This document shows, piece by piece, positions 5,392 through 62,953 of a DNA stretch of 64,000 bases. Every line of letters starts with the position of its first letter. The first letter of the stretch is position 1. Under the pieces are notes generated by a model, which saw nothing but the letters and a program-made list of their open reading frames with translations, made no database searches and was not told where the DNA came from. This stretch comes from Agarivorans sp. TSD2052. Lineage in GTDB: Bacteria > Pseudomonadota > Gammaproteobacteria > Enterobacterales > Celerinatantimonadaceae. The stretch is from assembly GCF_023238625.1 (NCBI RefSeq), contig NZ_CP096670.1, positions 4,236,001-4,300,000 on the forward strand, written 5' to 3'. Made by a program: the position numbers and the translations under genes.

Positions 5392-6297
5392 ATGCGTATA
5401 GCCATTTTATCTCGCGGAGAAAACCTCTACTCCACTCGTCGCTTAAAAGAGGCTGGTGAAGCCCGTGGCCATCAAGTAGATATCATAGATACCTTACACT
5501 GCTATATGGACATAACTAGCAGTAAACCCACGGTTCGCTACAACGGTGAGGTACTGCCTAACTACGATGCGGTCATCCCACGGATTGGTTCATCAATTAC
5601 TTTTTATGGTACAGCGGTGGTTCGTCAGTTTGAAATGATGGGTACCTTTTGTGTCAATGAATCGGTTGCCATTAGCCGTTCACGCGATAAGTTGCGCTCA
5701 CTACAATTATTGTCACGTAAAGGCATTGGTTTGCCACGCACCGGCTTTGCCAGCAAGCCTGACAAGATTCAAGATCTAATTAAAAATGTAGGTGGAGCGC
5801 CGCTAGTGATTAAGTTGCTTGAAGGCACGCAAGGCATTGGTGTTGTACTGGCCGAAACCAATAAAGCCGCCGAAAGTGTGATTGAAGCCTTTATGGGCTT
5901 AAAAGCCAACATTTTGGTACAAGAGTTTATTAAAGAAGCCGGGGGGGCCGATATTCGCTGCTTAGTAGTCGGAGGCAAAGTCGTCGCCGCTATGAAGCGC
6001 CAAGCGGCAGAGGGTGAGTTTCGTTCTAACTTACACCGCGGCGGCGCAGCACAGTTGGTCCGCTTGAGCAAAGAAGAGCGAGCCACTGCTGTTAATGCGG
6101 CAAAAGCCATGGGTTTAAACTTATGTGGTGTAGATATTTTGCAATCTAATAATGGTCCAGTGGTGATGGAAGTGAACTCTTCGCCAGGTTTAGAAGGCAT
6201 AGAAACATCCACCAAAAAAGATGTAGCAGGCATGGTATTTGAGTTTATTGAAAAAAATGCCAAACCCTTCGCCACTAAAACTCGTGGTAAAGGCTAA
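5392..6297 (+). CDS. rimK: Ribosomal protein S6 glutaminyl/glutamyl ligase RimK
   Basis: A 301-residue ATP-grasp ligase, the same length as E. coli RimK (300), which adds glutamate residues to the C-terminus of ribosomal protein S6. The N-terminal pre-ATP-grasp part begins [18 protein letters not shown]; the ATP-grasp domain runs from about residue 104, with the ATP-binding [11 protein letters not shown] loop near 143 and the Mg-binding [12 protein letters not shown] motif near residue 262. A GGATG-like site and 39 bases separate it from maoP. It is followed by an AstE-like hydrolase, an MscS-type channel and a RimB-type retropepsin, a set of neighbours known for rimK in many gammaproteobacteria. 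Confidence 0.93.
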
Positions 6298-6330
6298 TAG
6301 CATTAGGACTAAAGCGTTAAGAGGCTAACG

Positions 6331-7347
6331 ATGATCATTGCTGGAATAGAAGTAAAACCGGGTGAACATAAACAAATAGAAATTCCGGTAGCGAAACTAT
6401 ATACCGATACCAATATTTCTATTCCAGTGCATATCACCCGCGCAAAACGGGCGGGCCCAACGGTATTTATCAGCGCGGCAGTGCATGGTGATGAGCTAAA
6501 TGGCATCGAAATTATTCGTCGCTTAACGCGCTCCCCTAGTTTTAAGCTGACCAAGGGCTGCTTAATTGCTGTGCCCATGGTAAATATTTATGGGGTACTT
6601 AACCAAAGCCGCTATATGCCTGATCGGCGTGACTTAAACCGCTGCTTTCCAGGCTCTGAAAAAGGATCGTTAGCGGGCCGTTTGGCACACATTTTTTTAA
6701 GCGAAATAGTGGCGCAATGTGACTACGGCATTGATTTACACACCGGCGCGATTCATCGCTCAAATTTGCCACAAATCAGGGCTAATTTGAAAGATCCTGA
6801 GACTAAGCTCTTAGCCGAGGCCTTTGGTGTACCGGTTTTATTAAACGCCGATTTACGTGATGGTTCGTTACGTGAATCCGCGGTAAATAACGGAACCAAA
6901 ATCTTGCTTTATGAAGCCGGAGAAGCCTTACGCTTTGATGAATTATCGATTCAAAGTGGAGTAAAAGGCATTTTAAAAGTACTGTCGCATTTAGGTATGA
7001 TTAAGAAGCGGCGCAGTAGCAAAAAAGCGCCGCCTTACATTGCCTACAGTAGTTCGTGGTTACGCGCGTCTGCTAGTGGCATTGTCAGTGAATATGCCCA
7101 ATTAGGGGATCTGGTGGAAGAGGGGGATATATTGGCTGACATTTATAGCCCTTTTGGCAAGCTGATCAACCAAGTAACGGTTAAGCGCTCGGGTATTGTG
7201 ATTGGCAAACAAAACATCCCCTTGGTGCAAGAAGGCGATGCCATGTATCACCTCGCCTATTTTGGCGCCGACCAAGACGAAGTGGCAGAGCAAATAGAAA
7301 CCCTGCAAGAGTCAATTAAGCCCCTAGATAACGGCTTAGTACAATAA
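6331..7347 (+). CDS. Succinylglutamate desuccinylase/aspartoacylase-family hydrolase
   Basis: A 338-residue zinc hydrolase of the M14-related AstE/AspA family. The zinc site is visible: VHGDELNGIE with His52 and Glu55, and a later IDLHTG histidine near residue 147, plus the substrate-binding DLNRCFPG motif. The C-terminal third (SGIVSEYAQLGDLVEEGDILADI) is a lipoyl-like beta barrel domain common to this subgroup. The substrate is unknown; the constant link to rimK suggests, as inference only, that it removes glutamate-type modifications or trims small acyl amino acids. A 9-base gap joins it to the next gene. Confidence 0.88.
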   Translation: MIIAGIEVKPGEHKQIEIPVAKLYTDTNISIPVHITRAKRAGPTVFISAAVHGDELNGIEIIRRLTRSPSFKLTKGCLIAVPMVNIYGVLNQSRYMPDRRDLNRCFPGSEKGSLAGRLAHIFLSEIVAQCDYGIDLHTGAIHRSNLPQIRANLKDPETKLLAEAFGVPVLLNADLRDGSLRESAVNNGTKILLYEAGEALRFDELSIQSGVKGILKVLSHLGMIKKRRSSKKAPPYIAYSSSWLRASASGIVSEYAQLGDLVEEGDILADIYSPFGKLINQVTVKRSGIVIGKQNIPLVQEGDAMYHLAYFGADQDEVAEQIETLQESIKPLDNGLVQ

Positions 7348-7356
7348 GGTAAAGTA

Positions 7357-7914
7357 ATGAGCATTAACGAGATCTTATTAAGCGCTTTAGCCCTAATCGG
7401 CTTCATGGCTGGCCAAACTAAACTCAACCAATTGGTGCTAAAAATTGGGCAGGAACGTAGTATTGCCAAAGCGCGGATTCACTACGTAACTTGGGTATTG
7501 CGTAGTATTATGGCCTTAGTATTACTGATGATTCTCAGCATCATTAGTGATGTTGGCTTTAATGACTTCGGGGTATTTTTTTCCTCGGTATTTGCAGTTA
7601 TCGGCGTTGCTTTATTTGCCCAATGGTCAATTTTGAGTAATGTAACTGCCAGTATCATTGTGTTTTTCTTCTTCCCTTATCGGGTGGGTCACCAAGTTAA
7701 AATCTTAGATGGTGACAACTCCATTGAGGGGCGCCTAGAAGAAATTACCTTGTTTCACGTTATTTTGGTCGACGAGAACGGTGCTAAACTCACCTTCCCT
7801 AATTCGATGGTATTTCAAAAAGCGGTGGTGATTAGCGCCGAACAGAAAACGCAGCTTGATGCAGACCAACCGATTGAAACGCCAACAAGCACGGAGGAAA
7901 AAGCCAATGGCTAA
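7357..7914 (+). CDS. Short MscS-family mechanosensitive channel-like protein
   Basis: A 185-residue membrane protein. Hydrophobic helices lie near residues 4-22, 45-65 and 72-105. The join WSILSNVTASIIVFFFFPYRVGHQVKI matches the TM3/beta-domain boundary of MscS channels, and FPNSMVFQKAV matches the IPN motif after it. It lacks the large cytoplasmic cage of MscS (E. coli MscS is 286 residues), ending soon after the beta domain. It could be a minimal channel or a modulator. The stop codon overlaps the start of the retropepsin gene, so the two are translationally coupled in a rimK operon. Confidence 0.83.
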   Translation: MSINEILLSALALIGFMAGQTKLNQLVLKIGQERSIAKARIHYVTWVLRSIMALVLLMILSIISDVGFNDFGVFFSSVFAVIGVALFAQWSILSNVTASIIVFFFFPYRVGHQVKILDGDNSIEGRLEEITLFHVILVDENGAKLTFPNSMVFQKAVVISAEQKTQLDADQPIETPTSTEEKANG

Positions 7915-8338
7915 GTTAATCATTGGCAACCTAGAAACCTGCCATTTACCCGAACTCGGCATTAGCGAACTACCCGTTCGCATTGACACTGGAGCTAAAA
8001 CCTCATCTTTGCATGTGGATAATATTGAACGTAAAAAAATCAAGGGTAAGCCACATATTAGCTTTGATTTGCATCCAGATATTTATAACTTGGAGCAAGT
8101 TTGCCGATGTTCGGCGCCTATCTTTGATACGCGCCGCGTAAAATCATCTAATGGCGAAGTAGAGCAGCGTTATGTGATTCAAACCGCGTTCCAGTTAGGT
8201 GAGCAAACTTGGCCTATTGAGATAACCTTAACCAATCGCCAAGATATGAGTTACTTAATGTTATTAGGGCGCCAAGGCATGGGTGATAAAGTATTAGTAG
8301 ACCCTTCGCAAAGTTTTCTAGTTGATTCTGCCGGCTAA
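7907..8338 (+). CDS. rimB: RimB-like retropepsin ('ATP-dependent zinc protease' family)
   Basis: A 143-residue cytoplasmic protein of the Zn_protease/retropepsin-like family linked to RimK. The catalytic aspartate motif IDTGAKTSSLHV (Asp27-Thr-Gly) is intact, and the C-terminal MLLGRQGMGDKVLVDPSQSFL matches the family. In Pseudomonas the rimABK operon encodes a protein of this type that works with RimK. The ATG at 7907 has GGAGG 9 bases upstream and lies 8 bases inside the channel gene; an upstream ATG at 7856 with no ribosome site was not used. A second, exported member of the family lies at 27422. Confidence 0.85.
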   Translation: MAKLIIGNLETCHLPELGISELPVRIDTGAKTSSLHVDNIERKKIKGKPHISFDLHPDIYNLEQVCRCSAPIFDTRRVKSSNGEVEQRYVIQTAFQLGEQTWPIEITLTNRQDMSYLMLLGRQGMGDKVLVDPSQSFLVDSAG

Positions 8339-57416: not shown

Positions 57417-58544
57417 GTGACTGAACCCTTAAATAGTAAGCCATCATCTCCTTACGTATCACCAGGAATGCCCGCGCTGGATATGAATGGTAAAACCACT
57501 TCTTTCTTTGAATTTTGGCCCACTTGGGCGGTGTATATTCCGGTAGTGCTGCAATGGTTAGTGCTTAGTGTACGCCACCGCTCTCTTACCCTGCCTCTAT
57601 TAGCCAACCCCAAATTACCGCTGGCGGGTATGGTTGGAGTAGGGAAAAGTGAGTTGTTAATACAAGCCACCGGCAGTTGTGATAAGGCTGTACTACCGTG
57701 GCTAAAAGTTAATCGTAGTGGCGCGCCTTTAGCGCGCCAAGTGGAAGATTTACTACAAATAATGCAACAACGCGGGCTACAGTTTCCTTTAGTCGGTAAG
57801 CCTGACATTGGCTGCAGAGGCGCAGGAGTAAAACTACTTCACAATCGCCAGCAACTGCAAGATTGCTTAGACAGTTACCCTATGAATTCGGCTATGCTGC
57901 TGCAAAAACTGGCCAGCTATGAAGCAGAAGCCGGCGTATTTTTTGTACGCCACCCCGATCAGCCAGCCGGGGAAATTATCTCTCTTGCCTTAAAATACAC
58001 CCCTTATGTGGTGGGTGATGGGCAATCTAGCCTTAAACAACTAATTCAATCCGACCCGCGCGCCAGTGACTTACAGCACCTCTATTTAAGCCGTCACCAA
58101 GACAAGTTGGAGGAGATAATCGAGCAAGGCAAGCCCTACAAATTAGTATTTTCAGCCAGCCATTGTCGCGGGGCCATTTTCAGGGATGCCAATCAATTAA
58201 TTACCCCTGAACTGAACGCCGCCATCAATAAAATGATGGCTGACTTACCGGAATTTTATTATGGGCGAATGGACATTAAATTTGCCGATATCGAGCACCT
58301 TCAACAGGGTAAAGATTTAGAGATTGTGGAAATAAACAGCGCGAGTTCAGAGTCTTTACATATATGGGATAGGAAAACGCCCTTCAGCGAAGCGATGCGT
58401 TCTTTACTCTTTCAATATAAAACGCTGTTTGAGCTGGGCGCTGCTAACCGTAAACGAGGTTACCAACCACCCAAGCTTAAAGAGTTACTGGTCCGCTGGA
58501 AACACGAGCGCGAGCTAACCGCCTATTATCCCGAAACGGATTAA
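57417..58544 (+). CDS. ATP-grasp ligase-like protein, next to OlsF-like gene
   Basis: A 375-residue protein. After about 65 residues, including a hydrophobic stretch (WAVYIPVVLQWLVLSVRHRS), it has an ATP-grasp fold: FPLVGKPDIGCRGAGVKLL (residues about 123-141), MLLQKLASYEAEAGVFFVR, and metal-binding EIVEINSASSES near 304. It thus resembles D-Ala-D-Ala ligase-type enzymes, which join carboxylates to amines. The GTG start has AGGAA upstream. The gene is 10 bases before the OlsF-like gene. Its substrate is unknown; the pairing suggests that it makes or changes the head group of a lipid. Confidence 0.75.
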   Translation: MTEPLNSKPSSPYVSPGMPALDMNGKTTSFFEFWPTWAVYIPVVLQWLVLSVRHRSLTLPLLANPKLPLAGMVGVGKSELLIQATGSCDKAVLPWLKVNRSGAPLARQVEDLLQIMQQRGLQFPLVGKPDIGCRGAGVKLLHNRQQLQDCLDSYPMNSAMLLQKLASYEAEAGVFFVRHPDQPAGEIISLALKYTPYVVGDGQSSLKQLIQSDPRASDLQHLYLSRHQDKLEEIIEQGKPYKLVFSASHCRGAIFRDANQLITPELNAAINKMMADLPEFYYGRMDIKFADIEHLQQGKDLEIVEINSASSESLHIWDRKTPFSEAMRSLLFQYKTLFELGAANRKRGYQPPKLKELLVRWKHERELTAYYPETD

Positions 58545-58554
58545 GGAATCATCC

Positions 58555-60336
58555 ATGCAGAATAAAAATAACCCTTTTAGGCTAAGCATGCGCCCGCAAT
58601 GGCTAGCACGAATCATTGAAACAGCGCTTGGCCTTGCGAAACTCGCGCAAATCTATGATGACCGTCCTCACTACACTGATGATGGTAAAACCGCCTTAAA
58701 TTTTTTGCGCTATACCATGCGCAGCTTAGATTTTTCTTTTCTGGCCAACAATCCGGAAGCCCTCAAGGAAATACCAGAACAAGGACCACTGTTGATTGTG
58801 GCTAACCACCCTCTCGGCGGACTAGAAGGTGTAGCAATGAGCGAACTATTATTGCAAGTTCGCCCCGACCTGAAAGTGCTTACCAATGAATTACTGGCTA
58901 ACATTCCCGAGTTTAAGGATTTATTTATCGGCGTAGATGTACTCTCTGAACAGGCAGCCAAAAAGAATGCCCGTGGAATTCGACTGTCTTGTCAGCACCT
59001 CTCCAAAGGTGGCGCTTTAATGATTTATCCCGCTGGTATGGTATCGGCGATTAACACTGGAAATCGCCAAATAGAAGACCGCGAATGGAACAATTTGGTC
59101 GGTCGTTTGGCCAAACGTTATCAAGCTCAGATATTACCCTGCTTTGTTAGCGGCCGTAACTCCACCTTATTTTATCTTTCGGGCTTAATCCATCGTCGCT
59201 TACGCACCGCTTTACTCCCTCGCGAACTGGTCAATAAACGTGGTCGCGAATTCACGATGCAAGTGGGCGAATTAATTAAAGCCAAAGACTATCAAGACCT
59301 CAGTGATCAGCAGGCTGTCACTGACTACCTGCGTGTCGCTACTGATTTACTCAGTTTACCTATCAGCCAAACAACTACAACCGTGGCCAAACATCCTCCT
59401 TTACACCTTGTGGAGTGTTTACCTAATGGCCGCCAAGACTTACGCAAGCAACTCGACAATCTAGAAGATTGTATGCTGGTCACACACCGTAATTTTAGCG
59501 TTTATTGTGCTCCCTACTCGCGCCTTGGACCAATCATGGACGAGATAGCCTTAGCGCGAGAGGTGACTTTTAGGGCTGCTGGTGAAGGCACAGGCAACAA
59601 CATCGATAGCGACCAGTTTGACCCCAATTACCTACACTTATTTGTATGGGATAACGATAGTCATTGCTTAGTGGGGGGTTATCGCTTGGGGCACGCCAAC
59701 GAAATCGTTGCTCAACATGGTATTAATGCTCTGTATAGCCGTTCTTTGTATGACTTTGACCACAACTATTTAAAACGCATGGGCGATTGTTTAGAGATGG
59801 GCCGTTCATTTGTGGTACCTAAATACCAGCGACACCCGCGCGCCCTCGACTTATTGTGGCAAGGTATTGGCCACTACGTGGCGAAACATCCGCAATATCA
59901 CACACTATTTGGCTGTGTCAGTATTTCCCAAGAACATTCTGAGCTGGCACAAGCCTTCATCTCAGACTCTATGATTTCAGCCTTTCGTGCCGAGCAACGT
60001 TACTTAAACGATGTAAAACCGATGGTGCCTCTTAAGGTGAAAGGCAAAGTATGGACCAGTAAGGTGCTGGCTTCTCTGAGCAATATCGCCATTTTAAACA
60101 AACTAGTTGGCCAATGTGAGCCCGGTAAAACCATTCCTATTTTGCTGCGCCATTACTTAGCCTTAAATGGCCGTTTTGTCTGTTTTTCGGTGAATAACAG
60201 CTTTAATCAGTCATTAGATGGATTGATTATTGTTGATCTAAGAAAGACACCTGAGAAATATTTGCGTCGTTACCTCGGTCAAACAGGTAGTCAACGATTT
60301 TTGAACAAATGGAGAAACAATGAAGCAGCTGCGTGA
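58555..60336 (+). CDS. Bifunctional acyltransferase, OlsF-like
   Basis: A 593-residue protein of two parts. The N-terminal part (about residues 60-280) is a PlsC/OlsA-like O-acyltransferase with NHPLGGLEG (Asn84, His85) and YPAGMVS motifs. The C-terminal part (about residues 300-580) is a GNAT/hemolysin-like N-acyltransferase with CLEMGRSFVVPKYQRHPRAL and FGCVSISQEHS. This is the domain order of OlsF, which makes ornithine or other aminolipids, so an aminolipid role is likely. It overlaps the DinB gene by 17 bases. Confidence 0.8.
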   Translation: MQNKNNPFRLSMRPQWLARIIETALGLAKLAQIYDDRPHYTDDGKTALNFLRYTMRSLDFSFLANNPEALKEIPEQGPLLIVANHPLGGLEGVAMSELLLQVRPDLKVLTNELLANIPEFKDLFIGVDVLSEQAAKKNARGIRLSCQHLSKGGALMIYPAGMVSAINTGNRQIEDREWNNLVGRLAKRYQAQILPCFVSGRNSTLFYLSGLIHRRLRTALLPRELVNKRGREFTMQVGELIKAKDYQDLSDQQAVTDYLRVATDLLSLPISQTTTTVAKHPPLHLVECLPNGRQDLRKQLDNLEDCMLVTHRNFSVYCAPYSRLGPIMDEIALAREVTFRAAGEGTGNNIDSDQFDPNYLHLFVWDNDSHCLVGGYRLGHANEIVAQHGINALYSRSLYDFDHNYLKRMGDCLEMGRSFVVPKYQRHPRALDLLWQGIGHYVAKHPQYHTLFGCVSISQEHSELAQAFISDSMISAFRAEQRYLNDVKPMVPLKVKGKVWTSKVLASLSNIAILNKLVGQCEPGKTIPILLRHYLALNGRFVCFSVNNSFNQSLDGLIIVDLRKTPEKYLRRYLGQTGSQRFLNKWRNNEAAA

Positions 60337-60832
60337 GGCGACCGTAGAAGCACTACAACAAGTGCAACAATTGGTGGAAGCAAGTGATGAAGCACTCTAT
60401 AACCAGCCATCATTACACAGTGAATCAGGTATTGGTCGTCATGTTCGCCACATTTTAGATCACTTTCTCGCGCTACAACTCGGTTTGGAGCAAGGCAACA
60501 TTGATTACAATACTCGCCATCGTGATAGCGACATTGAAAATAATCCAAGCCTTGCACTCCAACTGATTGAACAGCTATCTGCTTGGATATTGCACCCAAC
60601 ATCAGCCATCATCGAACGTGCCGTTACGGTTGAATCTGAAGTGTCTTTAAAGCAGCAATACAGCATGCAATTTGATAGCAGCTTAAGCCGTGAACTTTGC
60701 TACTTAATTAATCACACGGTGCACCATGTCGCTTACGCAAAGCTAGTCGCTAAAGAGTTAAGCTTACCAGTAAGCGACAGCGTGGGCATTGCCCCTAGCA
60801 CTGCAAGTTACCTCCGCCAACAAGGGACTTAG
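60320..60832 (+). CDS. DinB-family protein
   Basis: A 170-residue four-helix protein of the DinB/YfiT type. IGRHVRHILDHFLALQLG near residues 38-55 and LINHTVHHVAYAKLVAKELSL near 131-151 hold the histidines that would bind a metal in place of the DinB-family triad. Members are metal-dependent transferases or hydrolases for small thiols; the substrate is not known. It starts inside the end of the OlsF-like gene and is followed by the NRDE gene after one base, so translational coupling is likely. Confidence 0.85.
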   Translation: MKQLREATVEALQQVQQLVEASDEALYNQPSLHSESGIGRHVRHILDHFLALQLGLEQGNIDYNTRHRDSDIENNPSLALQLIEQLSAWILHPTSAIIERAVTVESEVSLKQQYSMQFDSSLSRELCYLINHTVHHVAYAKLVAKELSLPVSDSVGIAPSTASYLRQQGT

Positions 60833-60833
60833 C

Positions 60834-61625
60834 ATGTGCACACTCAGTGTTCTTCGTCTTACAGACCATACTGTAATCACCATGAATCGCGATGAAGCGC
60901 GAAGCCGTCACGAGGCTGGCATGAAGCGCCAACACCAGGGTAAGCAGCAGCAGCTTTATCCGGTCGACGGCCAAGCAGGTGGCAGCTGGTTCGGCATCAA
61001 TAATCATGGGGTGGTACTGGCGCTGCTCAACCGTTATCAAGATCCTCAGCGTAGCGAAGCTCCCACTCGCGGACAGATAATACCCCAGGCATTAGCCTAT
61101 GGTTCGGCTATCTCAGTAAGCCAGCATCTAGCCGCTCAAGACTATCAGCTTTATAACCCTTTTGATTTGGTGTTTATCGCAGCAACTATCAGCCAGCATT
61201 TCAGCTGGAACGGCCAACAATTAACCCTGACGAACTTAGACCAAAGCGCCTTCCAATTCAGCTCGTCAGCGATTAATACTGAGCAAGTATTATCAAGCCG
61301 CAAGCAACGTTTTGACCAGTGGTTACAGCATACTCTGTCTGCCAGTGCGACATCTGTATTACAAGAGATTCACCTGCAACAATGCCAGAAAAATCGCCAA
61401 CACTCGGTGTTAATGGACCGCCACGATGCCCACAGCAAAAGTATTTGCCAAGTGCAGCTAGGAGCCAATACTAGCCAATTTGACTACTACCCAGAACAAA
61501 GTTTACAGGCTTGGCGAGAACAGCTACACCAACCACAACAGACGGCTTCGCTAGCATCGCTAAGCAAACAACAGCATCTGTTTCAACTGATTAATCCCGC
61601 TTTAATCGATGAGGTATCATCATGA
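60834..61625 (+). CDS. NRDE (TANGO2) family protein
   Basis: A 263-residue protein. It begins MCTLSVLR, so a cysteine follows the start methionine as the possible N-terminal nucleophile, and TMNRDEARSRHE near residue 17 gives the family name. GGSWFGINNHGVVLALLNRY is another family motif. TANGO2-type proteins have been linked to haem or acyl-group handling, but no reaction is fixed. The start follows the DinB stop by one base, and its end overlaps the YHS gene by 4 bases. Confidence 0.87.
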   Translation: MCTLSVLRLTDHTVITMNRDEARSRHEAGMKRQHQGKQQQLYPVDGQAGGSWFGINNHGVVLALLNRYQDPQRSEAPTRGQIIPQALAYGSAISVSQHLAAQDYQLYNPFDLVFIAATISQHFSWNGQQLTLTNLDQSAFQFSSSAINTEQVLSSRKQRFDQWLQHTLSASATSVLQEIHLQQCQKNRQHSVLMDRHDAHSKSICQVQLGANTSQFDYYPEQSLQAWREQLHQPQQTASLASLSKQQHLFQLINPALIDEVSS

Positions 61626-62056
61626 AAAAACTGCTTTTAGTATTACTGTTTGTATCTGGCTATAGTTTTGCCGCCGATCCCATTTACACCCCTTGGTTTA
61701 ATAACCTTGCCATTAAAGGTTACGACAGTGTGGCTTATTTCACTGATAATAAGCCCATAGAAGGCAGTGAACAATTTGAATATCAATGGCAAGGCGCCAC
61801 TTGGCGATTTAGTAGTGCTCACAATTTGGCGCTGTTTAAAGCCGATCCTGAACAGTATGCCCCGCAGTATGGTGGCTACTGCGCCTACGCCGTCGCTAAA
61901 GGTAAAACGGCGAGTATCGAGCCTGAGCAATTTACCGTCCTAAATGGCAAGCTCTATCTTAATTACAACGCCAGTGTGCAACAAAAATGGCAAGCTGAGC
62001 GTGATAGCTACATAGAAAAAGCTGACAAAAACTGGCCTAAAGTACTCAATGATTAA
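61622..62056 (+). CDS. Exported YHS-domain protein
   Basis: A 144-residue protein with a signal peptide (MKKLLLVLLFVSGYSFA) and a YHS-like domain (LAIKGYDSVAYFTDNKPIEG, then EQYAPQYGGYCAYAVAKGK). YHS domains bind metals or copper in several families. It is the product of an ORF whose ATG overlaps the NRDE stop (ATGA). Function unknown. It overlaps the next gene by 8 bases. Confidence 0.85.
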   Translation: MKKLLLVLLFVSGYSFAADPIYTPWFNNLAIKGYDSVAYFTDNKPIEGSEQFEYQWQGATWRFSSAHNLALFKADPEQYAPQYGGYCAYAVAKGKTASIEPEQFTVLNGKLYLNYNASVQQKWQAERDSYIEKADKNWPKVLND

Positions 62057-62450
62057 ACACTATCAAAAACTGGTTAATCAGCTAAGTCCTTGGCAAATAG
62101 CGTTGTTAGCGGCGCTACTTTACGGCGCTTGGGCGGCTTTTGTAAATAGTGAATATGGCAGCAATATCGCATTTAAAGCCGGCATTGTTCAGGGCAGTTA
62201 TGCTTTTGGCTCTACTTGGTTAATTAGCTTTATCGCTAAATCGGTCTTGCAACACTGGGGGTATAGCCAAGCCGTTCGCTGCTTGGCTATGGCGGTCAGC
62301 TGGTTAGTGATGTTGTTTATTCCGGTCACCTTACATACTTGGCAACAGACCCCTGACTTAATTGAAGCGATGTTACCCGGCCTAGCCATTGGTAGTGTGT
62401 ATTTATGGACTTATTGCTTTCAATTAGAAGCCAAGCCAGCCAGCACTTAA
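62049..62450 (+). CDS. Hypothetical membrane protein
   Basis: A 133-residue protein with about four hydrophobic helices (for example residues 15-32, 48-65, 78-97, 108-125). Its gene overlaps the YHS gene by 8 bases, so it belongs to the same transcription unit from the ATP-grasp gene. I do not recognise a family. It may take part in a membrane-lipid function, given the context; this is only an inference. Confidence 0.7.
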   Translation: MIKHYQKLVNQLSPWQIALLAALLYGAWAAFVNSEYGSNIAFKAGIVQGSYAFGSTWLISFIAKSVLQHWGYSQAVRCLAMAVSWLVMLFIPVTLHTWQQTPDLIEAMLPGLAIGSVYLWTYCFQLEAKPAST

Positions 62451-62458
62451 CCCATGTC

Positions 62459-62953
62459 TTACTCGCGTTTGTTAGTTTTACTGTCTGGATGTTGTACCGT
62501 TTGAAGGTAGGCATAATCTAGCTTGCCTTGCTCCTCTTTCGCCCTACGCCTTTGTCTCTGATAGAGGCGTAGGCGTTTTACTTTTTCTTCCTGAGGGTTA
62601 GTCCAAGCCAGGTATAACAATCCACCGAGAGAGATCATACTCATCGCACTTAACAGGGCGGTGACCGATGACTCGGCGACACTAGTGGTTAATATCATAT
62701 TCAGAATATGCACAAAGGCGATGACCGTTAATAATAAACGACCATGCAGGCTGCTATAAAGCAGAGAATAAGCGGCCAGTAAACTTAAAAACAATACCAC
62801 TAGGGCGAGCTCAAAGCGTAACGGAAATATCCATATTCGATGCAGCAAGTTTTGCTCAGCAAAGCCCCCCCCTAAGGCTGTGGCGAGAAAAGCCAAGAAG
62901 GCACAACAAACAAAAATATTAATGGCATATTTGAGCGACTTGATATGTGTCAT
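62459..62953 (-). CDS. Hypothetical membrane protein
   Basis: A 164-residue protein with about four hydrophobic helices (residues near 8-27, 42-62, 67-88 and 98-117) and a basic, charged C-terminal tail with many K, R and Q (EEKVKRLRLYQRQRRRAKEE). It is convergent with the preceding membrane protein. No family recognised. The start ATG at 62953 has TGAGGGTGAGTC upstream. Confidence 0.68.
   Translation of the reverse strand: MTHIKSLKYAINIFVCCAFLAFLATALGGGFAEQNLLHRIWIFPLRFELALVVLFLSLLAAYSLLYSSLHGRLLLTVIAFVHILNMILTTSVAESSVTALLSAMSMISLGGLLYLAWTNPQEEKVKRLRLYQRQRRRAKEEQGKLDYAYLQTVQHPDSKTNKRE

What the first reader, a model, noticed from the sequence alone, without database searches (positions are those of the whole stretch)
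57417..62450. ATP-grasp ligase paired with an OlsF-like bifunctional acyltransferase and a coupled downstream set
Seen: an ATP-grasp gene lies 10 bases before a PlsC-GNAT fusion, followed by overlapping DinB, NRDE, YHS and membrane-protein genes. Known: OlsF fusions make ornithine-type aminolipids. Inference: the ATP-grasp enzyme may make or modify an aminolipid head group, and the downstream genes may process it. I do not know this pair as a described pathway.
Basis: partly seen in the sequence, partly recalled or inferred. Interest (0 to 1): 0.7.

Follow-up and report, generated by a model that had tools for sequence, protein, structure and literature searches.

The report
ATP-grasp ligase in ornithine-lipid operon
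A marine bacterium carries a conserved set of genes in which a ligase of unknown substrate travels with a probable ornithine-lipid synthase, which suggests that some bacteria chemically extend or otherwise handle this membrane lipid in a way that I did not find described.

Summary
Window 57417-62450 (Agarivorans-like) holds one co-oriented set: ATP-grasp, OlsF-like fusion, DinB, NRDE/TANGO2, YHS and a small membrane protein. The link between ATP-grasp and aminolipid acyltransferase recurs: in 41 of 55 mapped loci (two of the 55 appear to be one record) an OlsF-like or split OlsB-like gene lies within 7 kb on the same strand. None of 16 canonical OlsF loci has ATP-grasp, DinB, NRDE or YHS within 1.5 kb. 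The window's synthase belongs to a second OlsF clade that holds both proven ornithine-lipid synthases of Vibrio cholerae; one of them, VCA0646, is the last gene of this same set there (PMC12186959). VTT membrane-protein genes lie near the ATP-grasp in 34 of 55 loci, sometimes fused to it. Best reading: a membrane-associated carboxylate-amine ligase that derivatises the ornithine-lipid head group. The pathway link is strong; substrate and chemistry are inferred, and published V. cholerae labelling reports only ornithine lipid plus label at the origin. Roles of DinB, NRDE and YHS stay open. The searches I ran showed no paper that ties this ligase to aminolipids.

The parts
57417..58544 (+). ATP-grasp carboxylate-amine ligase (375 aa) with a hydrophobic N-terminal segment (about residues 34-52)
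   Evidence: RimK Pfam 26.9 bits, cut-off 21; weak cyanophycin synthetase match; family profile nearest in PDB to RimK-domain, glutathione synthase and cyanophycin synthase chains; K128, D286, E305, N307 invariant in the 13 rows aligned; hydropathy
58555..60336 (+). OlsF-like bifunctional acyltransferase (593 aa), second OlsF clade
   Evidence: Acyltransf_2 plus Acetyltransf_5; NF052615 405 bits, cut-off 620; trees; conserved residues
60320..60832 (+). DinB-family protein with conserved histidines (among them H44, H132, H136)
   Evidence: Pfam DinB 23.6 bits, cut-off 23; His invariant in 7 of 7 aligned relatives
60834..61625 (+). NRDE/TANGO2-family protein; Cys directly after the start residue (ORF list start 60789 is upstream of the likely start)
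   Evidence: TANGO2 65.2 bits from the 60834 start; Cys and the R-D-E of the NRDE motif invariant in 7 of 7
61622..62056 (+). YHS-domain (seleno)protein with a signal-peptide-like N-terminus (by eye, not predicted with a tool)
   Evidence: NF041384 170.6 bits, cut-off 70; Pfam YHS 41.7 bits
62049..62450 (+). small membrane protein (133 aa), no family; homologues recur with DinB and the ATP-grasp in other genomes
   Evidence: same element in L065, L064, L066, L003 and more weakly in L004, L081, L082
55804..57273 (-). left boundary, not part: divergent ModF-like ABC ATPase
   Evidence: PRK10938 444 bits, cut-off 459
62459..62953 (-). right boundary, not part: convergent ORF of no family

Best explanation
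This is an aminolipid operon. The OlsF-like enzyme N-acylates ornithine with a 3-hydroxy fatty acid and then O-acylates that hydroxyl, giving ornithine lipid (inferred from clade-mates that were tested in print). The ATP-grasp enzyme, held at the inner face of the membrane by its hydrophobic N-terminal segment, uses ATP to activate a carboxylate as an acyl phosphate and forms an amide on the ornithine-lipid head group: either the lipid's free alpha-carboxylate with an amine, as in the known ornithine-taurine lipid, or an amino acid with the lipid's delta-amine. VTT (DedA-type, recalled) and DoxX-like membrane proteins that accompany or are fused to the ATP-grasp elsewhere would move or anchor the product. 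Shown: gene set, domains, conserved catalytic-type residues, recurrent linkage to fused and split acyltransferases, VTT fusions, membership of the OlsF in a clade with proven synthases. Inferred: that the substrate is the lipid, which group is joined, and every role of DinB, NRDE and YHS. I put the pathway link (ATP-grasp works with the aminolipid) at about 0.85 and the full head-group-ligase statement at 0.5.
For: Linkage: an OlsF-like or GNAT gene within 7 kb, same strand, in 41 of 55 loci mapped, including split DinB-ATPG-OlsB-like-OlsA-like (4 genomes of label f8) and DinB-NRDE-ATPG-OlsB-like-OlsA-like-YHS (2 genomes of f152), and ATPG beside an OlsB-like GNAT in G1061 and Variovorax. Control: 0 of 16 canonical OlsF loci have ATPG, DinB, NRDE or YHS within 1.5 kb. 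Joint absence: the same-genus genome G006 and same-family genomes G008 and G010 lack both the ATP-grasp and the clade-2 OlsF and keep only the canonical one. Co-occurrence: of 397 Pseudomonadota genomes 17 have the ATP-grasp, and all 17 are listed among the 274 of 397 with PF13444; 12 of 12 chosen ATP-grasp genomes, 9 of them without an acyltransferase nearby, have PF13444 (G583's only match is its cut-short OlsF). Proven clade-mates: VC0489 and VCA0646 (PMC12186959, abstract, passages and Discussion) fall in the same clade, score like the window protein on NF052615 (419 and 434 against 405), and VCA0646 is the last gene of VTT-ATPG-DinB-NRDE-YHS-OlsF. The own genome also has a canonical OlsF (836 bits). 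VTT-ATPG fusions in G781, G1044 and Azospirillum lipoferum. Residues invariant. Head groups Gly-Ser, Gly-Ser-Orn and Orn-taurine are known (PMC8433624, PMC6669457, PMC12493201, passages).
Against: In 14 of 55 loci no acyltransferase is within 7 kb on the same strand, and on the one Komagataeibacter plasmid mapped the ATP-grasp has neither a lipid gene nor VTT beside it. PF13444 is common (274 of 397), so genome-level co-occurrence alone is weak; it was not corrected for kinship. Many of the 55 loci are close kin. In V. cholerae, which carries the whole set, the published labelling reports ornithine lipid plus label at the origin and no modified lipid in the parts I read. VCA0646 makes ornithine lipid alone in E. 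coli, so the ligase is not needed for the base lipid. Six (tree) or seven clade-2 OlsF rows have no ATP-grasp beside them. The structure model failed (mean pLDDT 36.9), so no fold-level substrate hint exists. The hydrophobic segment is modest (maximum Kyte-Doolittle mean 1.39 in the window), and in 2 of the 8 proteins examined the highest window is elsewhere.
Confidence: 0.5

Rival explanations
1. Shared-condition module: the ATP-grasp, DinB, NRDE, YHS and VTT proteins do another envelope job (metal, heme, redox or acyl-CoA handling) and sit with the synthase only because both are needed in the same stress.
For: 14 of 55 ATP-grasp loci lack a nearby acyltransferase; DinB-ATPG sets exist without one (G154, G081); a promoter is reported immediately upstream of VCA0646 inside the set (PMC12186959, passages); DinB and NRDE also lie near OlsF without an ATP-grasp nearby in G017.
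Against: The pairing survives swaps between fused OlsF and split OlsB/OlsA and changes of gene order, and none of the 22 distinct ATP-grasp genomes checked lacks a PF13444 match (in G583 it is a cut-short OlsF), which mere co-regulation does not require.
Confidence: 0.27
2. Precursor first: the ATP-grasp makes a soluble dipeptide or amino-acid amide that the linked acyltransferase then acylates.
For: Cyanophycin- and RimK-type ATP-grasp relatives join amino acids (recalled); the linked OlsF, OlsB-like and OlsA-like proteins that I scanned all score below the curated ornithine cut-offs.
Against: Two proven ornithine synthases score equally low (419 and 434 of 620), so the low score does not mean another substrate; in V. 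cholerae VCA0646 incorporates labelled ornithine (PMC12186959, passages), presumably with the ATP-grasp gene present (I saw it in G1255, not in strain A1552 itself); the VTT fusions point to a membrane substrate.
Confidence: 0.13
3. Acyl supply: the ATP-grasp activates a fatty acid as an acyl phosphate and itself forms an amide with an amino acid, in parallel to the GNAT domain.
For: ATP-grasp enzymes that make acyl-histidine are cited in the aminolipid review PMC11631085 (passage), and the GH3-like OlsH does ATP-dependent ornithine acylation in planctomycetes (PMC12493201, abstract passages).
Against: A GNAT-type N-acyltransferase domain is encoded beside it or elsewhere in each genome checked, so the step would be redundant; the review names Pfam 13535 for that activity, while this protein matches RimK.
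Confidence: 0.07
4. Neutral synteny inside related marine bacteria, without functional meaning.
For: Many of the 55 loci are close kin (Vibrio-type and Agarivorans-type genomes).
Against: 16 of 26 genus-level groups (my grouping), several acyltransferase arrangements, and gene fusions of ATP-grasp with VTT.
Confidence: 0.03

Closest known systems
V. cholerae VCA0646 locus (OlsF homologue expressed at low salinity; PMC12186959)
   Same: Same gene set: VTT, ATP-grasp, DinB, NRDE, YHS, OlsF in genome G1255; same OlsF clade.
   Different: Gene order differs (OlsF last, VTT first), and the window set has no VTT but a small membrane protein. The paper treats VCA0649-VCA0646 as a four-gene putative operon; the terms ATP-grasp, ligase, DedA, VCA0650 and VCA0651 do not occur in its main text.
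Canonical OlsF (NF052615; also encoded elsewhere in this genome)
   Same: Acyltransf_2 plus Acetyltransf_5 type fusion with shared conserved residues.
   Different: Separate, well-supported clade; the 16 canonical loci examined lack the ATP-grasp set.
OlsB/OlsA ornithine-lipid synthases
   Same: The split acyltransferases beside the ATP-grasp that I scanned (one f8 and one f152 genome) match them best (OlsB model 142 and 177 bits, OlsA model 172 and 172 bits).
   Different: All below the curated cut-offs (350 and 300).
Cyanophycin synthetase / RimK / glutathione synthase ATP-grasp ligases
   Same: Nearest solved relatives by profile (8fxh 6.6e-8, 7ta5 9.8e-7, 7txv 6.5e-6).
   Different: Only about 200 residues match; far below the NCBIfam cut-offs; this family has its own N-terminal segment.
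Ornithine-taurine lipid (cerilipin) and Gly-Ser / Gly-Ser-Orn peptide lipids
   Same: Aminolipid head groups joined by a further amide, the product class proposed here (PMC6669457, PMC8433624, PMC12493201, passages).
   Different: No link to these genes has been shown; occurrence in Agarivorans is unknown. PMC12493201 speaks of 'taurine transfer' as a known modification and cites papers that I did not read, so an enzyme may be known.

Membership tests
OlsF (bifunctional ornithine lipid synthase) | Acyltransf_2 and Acetyltransf_5 domains in one chain | tested here: met
   68.1 and 71.7 bits, both above cut-off
OlsF (bifunctional ornithine lipid synthase) | NCBIfam equivalog NF052615 cut-off (620 bits) | tested here: not met
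   405 bits; but the proven synthases VC0489 and VCA0646 also fail it (419, 434), so I call the window protein OlsF-like, clade 2
OlsF (bifunctional ornithine lipid synthase) | Conserved residues of both acyltransferase domains | tested here: met
   N84 H85 P86 G88, E336, R340, E414 and G416-S418 among others conserved in 26 linked and 18 canonical rows (that these are catalytic is recalled)
OlsF (bifunctional ornithine lipid synthase) | Makes ornithine lipid on expression | not testable with these tools
   Only the V. cholerae clade-mates were tested, in print (PMC12186959)
ATP-grasp superfamily | Profile match and invariant ATP/Mg residues | tested here: met
   RimK 26.9 bits over cut-off 21; K128, D286, E305, N307 invariant in the 13 rows aligned; residue roles recalled
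RimK / cyanophycin synthetase families proper | NCBIfam curated cut-offs | tested here: not met
   cya_phycin_syn 31.8 of 850, rimK_fam 19.8 of 143.4
D-alanine-D-alanine ligase (name given in some records, e.g. Salinivibrio) | Match to a Ddl model | tested here: not met
   No Ddl family among Pfam or NCBIfam matches up to E 0.1 for the window protein; weak PDB matches to Ddl chains only (E 3e-4 at best)
DinB metal-dependent family | Profile match and metal-binding histidines | tested here: met
   23.6 bits at cut-off 23; His invariant in 7 of 7; metal role recalled
NRDE/TANGO2 family | Profile match, N-terminal Cys, NRDE motif | tested here: met
   65.2 bits; Cys, R, D, E invariant in 7 of 7

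The most novel reading that the evidence does not exclude
A previously unnamed ATP-grasp family is a dedicated aminolipid head-group ligase that turns ornithine lipid into an amide-extended lipid at the membrane, with VTT/DedA proteins as its partner translocases. It would occur in alpha-, beta- and gammaproteobacteria, be annotated as D-Ala-D-Ala ligase, VTT protein or hypothetical protein, and supply a ligase for lipids of the ornithine-taurine type.
Probability: 0.35. Interest if true: 0.8.

Novelty: new variant of a known kind. Interest (0 to 1): 0.62.

Why it matters
Ornithine lipids can be formed by about half of sequenced bacterial species (PMC12186959, Discussion). Extended head groups such as ornithine-taurine and Gly-Ser are known chemically, and the searches and passages that I saw name no ligase for them. 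If this ATP-grasp does that job, it would explain a conserved, inconsistently annotated gene set in marine bacteria and Vibrio, give genes to known lipids, and suggest a lipid partner for VTT (DedA-type) membrane proteins. It also recasts the VCA0646 low-salinity locus as a six-gene set whose first two genes are not mentioned in that paper's main text.

Tried and rejected
AlphaFold model of the ATP-grasp from a three-row alignment (collected): mean pLDDT 36.9, discarded; no fold search was run. Paper search for PDB entry 8FXH gave two unrelated papers. Paper search for dipeptide lipid with GlsB and ligase gave none; the six papers were seen as a listing only. Pho-box pattern: 7 matches in the window against 4.3 expected; one (60905, inside the NRDE gene) lies in the set and none directly upstream of it, so no phosphate-control claim. 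Promoter and terminator scan: 7 and 7 against shuffled means 9.0 and 6.1, so no boundary claim from it. PurE as a taxon marker for G972 and G991: nearest solved chains are ones that I recall as Acetobacter aceti; for acetic acid bacteria I use only the named Komagataeibacter records. The idea that the window OlsF must use a different amino acid because it misses the curated cut-off was dropped. The idea that acetic acid bacteria prove the cerilipin link was dropped: on the plasmid mapped the ATP-grasp is not beside aminolipid genes, and their chromosomes were not seen by name.

Rows dropped before counts: L061 (G045, contig end, second ATP-grasp copy) was left out of the 55 loci. L110 and L173 appear to be the same record (same length and coordinates), so 54 are probably distinct. 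Genomes G001, G003, G004, G005 and G011 were not mapped in full (coordinates and short loci only; in all five the pair is adjacent). Three weak ATP-grasp matches (G012, G021, G033; E 1e-5 to 3e-4) were taken as other ATP-grasps and not followed. In one search the OlsF of G031 (L037) was labelled linked by hand, because its ATP-grasp lies outside the short locus but inside L056. The tree left out the long-branch row L141. Near-identical OlsF rows were removed by a 5-mer rule (70 to 51). Both trees are quick searches with SH-aLRT support only, midpoint-rooted, with long-branch warnings. Of 29 plasmid records with a match eight were opened.
Full report
What is there. The window lies at 4236001-4300000 of a 4.6 Mb single-contig genome; the nearest named match to its OlsF-like protein is in Agarivorans sp. 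Toyoura001 (89%, residues 1-593). Six co-oriented genes run from 57417 to 62450: a 375-aa ATP-grasp protein, 10 bases, a 593-aa acyltransferase fusion, DinB, NRDE/TANGO2, a YHS (seleno)protein and a small membrane protein. The fusion scores 405 bits on the ornithine lipid synthase model NF052615, whose cut-off is 620. The ATP-grasp protein is weakly detected by general models (RimK 26.9 bits), and its V. cholerae homologue gets no Pfam match at E 0.001, which may be why public records name the family inconsistently (D-Ala-D-Ala ligase, ATP-grasp, VTT or hypothetical).

A second OlsF. The genome also encodes a canonical OlsF elsewhere (34% identical to the window protein; 836 bits, above the cut-off). 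A quick tree of 51 OlsF rows has two sides, each with SH-aLRT 100 (no bootstrap, midpoint root): 18 canonical rows, none with the ATP-grasp gene in its locus, and 33 rows that include the window protein, 27 of them linked to the ATP-grasp gene (one labelled by hand). A second tree with the two V. cholerae proteins and without one long-branch row gives the same split: 18 against 34, of which 27 are linked. Of the columns conserved in at least 95% of both linked and canonical rows, five differ between the two sets and the rest are the same residue, so both acyltransferase domains look intact.

Linkage. I mapped 55 loci that hold the ATP-grasp gene (L110 and L173 appear to be one record). In 41 of 55 an OlsF-like or OlsB-like (GNAT) gene lies within 7 kb on the same strand (recounted); one of the 41 (G583) has both genes cut short, by what looks like a single deletion. 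By genus label or organism this is 16 of 26 groups (my grouping from the labels and the named records; G183, which has no acyltransferase nearby, is counted under its genus, and some named and unnamed groups could be the same genus). The arrangement varies: ATPG-OlsF-DinB-NRDE-YHS-MEMB (Agarivorans and kin); VTT-ATPG-DinB-NRDE-YHS-(DoxX-like in some)-OlsF (Vibrio, Photobacterium, G484, G882); DinB-ATPG-OlsB-like-OlsA-like (four genomes labelled f8); DinB-NRDE-ATPG-OlsB-like-OlsA-like-YHS (two of f152); an OlsB-like GNAT beside ATPG (G1061, Variovorax); OlsF followed by a VTT-ATPG fusion (G781). Of the split proteins I scanned one pair each: L079 scores 177 and 172 bits and L059 142 and 172 on the OlsB and OlsA models, all below cut-off. 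'DoxX-like' is a loose label: the Pfam matches are below cut-off. A VTT gene or domain lies within 7 kb in 34 of 55 loci, in 32 of them on the same strand. Fourteen loci have no acyltransferase nearby, among them all four alphaproteobacterial plasmid loci that I opened by name (two Paracoccus, Azospirillum lipoferum, Komagataeibacter medellinensis): Azospirillum has a VTT-ATPG fusion, the two Paracoccus loci a VTT gene on the other strand, Komagataeibacter none. The chromosomes of those four were not searched for aminolipid genes.

Controls. Of 30 short OlsF loci (1.5 kb each side where the contig allowed), 16 are canonical by score, and 0 of those 16 have ATP-grasp, DinB, NRDE or YHS matches; one has a weak VTT match (16.8 bits). 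Of the other 14, ten show the ATP-grasp within that distance. Same-genus G006 and same-family G008 and G010 lack both the ATP-grasp and the clade-2 OlsF. The ATP-grasp was found in 7 of 370 (class), 35 of 394 (order) and 17 of 397 (phylum) genomes; the draws overlap and the thresholds differ (1e-20, 1e-20, 1e-15). All 17 of the phylum draw are listed among the 274 of 397 genomes with PF13444. This is consistent but weak alone, since PF13444 is common and kinship was not corrected. Twelve chosen ATP-grasp genomes, nine of them without an acyltransferase nearby, all have a PF13444 match; in G583 that match is the cut-short OlsF.

The experimental anchor. PMC12186959 (abstract, passages, and the Discussion read in full) reports that V. 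cholerae VC0489 and VCA0646 both make ornithine lipid in E. coli, that VCA0646 does so in V. cholerae at low salinity, and that its loss changes polymyxin B susceptibility there. With primers printed in that paper I found the matching genome (exact VC0489 primer in 1 of 227 genomes of the genus), its two OlsF genes (44% and 41% identical to the window protein) and their surroundings. Further primers agree: the VCA0649 promoter amplicon runs from 6561 to 6869 of L181, 309 bases as the paper's 258 + 51, which puts the VCA0649 start at 6819, the start of the DinB gene; the VCA0646 primer falls on the start of the OlsF gene with one mismatch at the start codon. Upstream of DinB lie an ATP-grasp (555 bits to my profile) and a VTT gene. 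So the window's set is the set of the VCA0646 locus in another order. Both proven synthases score 419 and 434 on NF052615, like the window protein, so the missed cut-off does not argue for another amino acid. Ornithine is therefore the likely first head group (inference).

Mechanism. RimK, cyanophycin synthetase and glutathione synthase, the nearest solved relatives by profile, join a carboxylate to an amine through an acyl phosphate (recalled). The Lys, Asp, Glu and Asn positions expected for catalysis are invariant in the 13 family members aligned (roles recalled). A hydrophobic segment near residues 34-52 and the fusions to VTT membrane domains put the enzyme at the membrane (inference). 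The linked acyltransferases make a lipid that offers a free carboxylate and a delta-amine, and aminolipids are known whose head group carries a further amide: Gly-Ser, Gly-Ser-Orn and ornithine-taurine (PMC8433624, PMC6669457 and PMC12493201, passages only). The simplest chain is OlsF, then ATP-grasp on the lipid, then a membrane protein that moves it. Against it: the V. cholerae labelling legend reports radioactivity in ornithine lipid and at the origin, and no new lipid. The origin signal could hide a more polar derivative, but the paper does not say so, and I saw no statement on whether it differs between strains.

Downstream genes. DinB keeps its histidines and NRDE its Cys and NRDE motif; a paper says human TANGO2 binds acyl-CoA (PMC11867700, search listing with the start of the abstract). 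These make DinB a likely metal protein and NRDE a possible acyl-binding or amidase-type protein, but I assign no step to them.

What is in print. Searches for ATP-grasp with OlsF, with aminolipid, with ornithine lipid and related terms (top 15 of 55 listed), for dipeptide lipid with GlsB and ligase (none) and for DedA/VTT with aminolipid terms (top 15 of 45 listed) showed no paper that joins this ATP-grasp to aminolipids. The only paper with both ATP-grasp and OlsF, PMC11631085 (passages), cites a different ATP-grasp (acyl-histidine). PMC12493201 mentions taurine transfer as a known modification and cites work that I did not read. The library is open-access only, so this is not proof of absence.

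Verdict. Observation confirmed; interpretation supported at the pathway level; the chemistry is open and directly testable. New variant of a known kind: an aminolipid operon with a ligase component that I did not find described.

Noticed in passing
window 5392-8338: A second, ordinary-looking RimK-type ATP-grasp ORF followed by a deacylase-like ORF and a protease-like ORF; looks like the known RimK cluster (names from recall, read from the translations, not scanned).
   Followed up: no
G000:C1:3369245-3370789 (L070): The own genome also carries a canonical OlsF (836 bits), and PF13444 has 6 matches in this genome, so probably four further GNATs of this family exist besides the two OlsF.
   Followed up: partly
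L115 (G583:C7:118000-134000): A Vibrio-type genome in which the ATP-grasp and OlsF genes are both cut short and the genes usually between them are missing, as if by one deletion.
   Followed up: partly
L068 (G017) and L067 (G016): Clade-2 OlsF genes without an ATP-grasp nearby but with NRDE and/or DinB matches nearby on the other strand, so the DinB/NRDE link to OlsF may outlast the ATP-grasp.
   Followed up: partly
L082 (G081:C1:50000-67000): A DinB-ATP-grasp pair followed by an overlapping TauE/SafE family gene, of interest because taurine is one candidate amine.
   Followed up: no
L056 and L113: In several Vibrio-type genomes a 5'-nucleotidase-like gene (Pfam for L056) and oppositely oriented cysD/cysN-like genes (names from recall) lie just upstream of the VTT-ATP-grasp set.
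   Followed up: no
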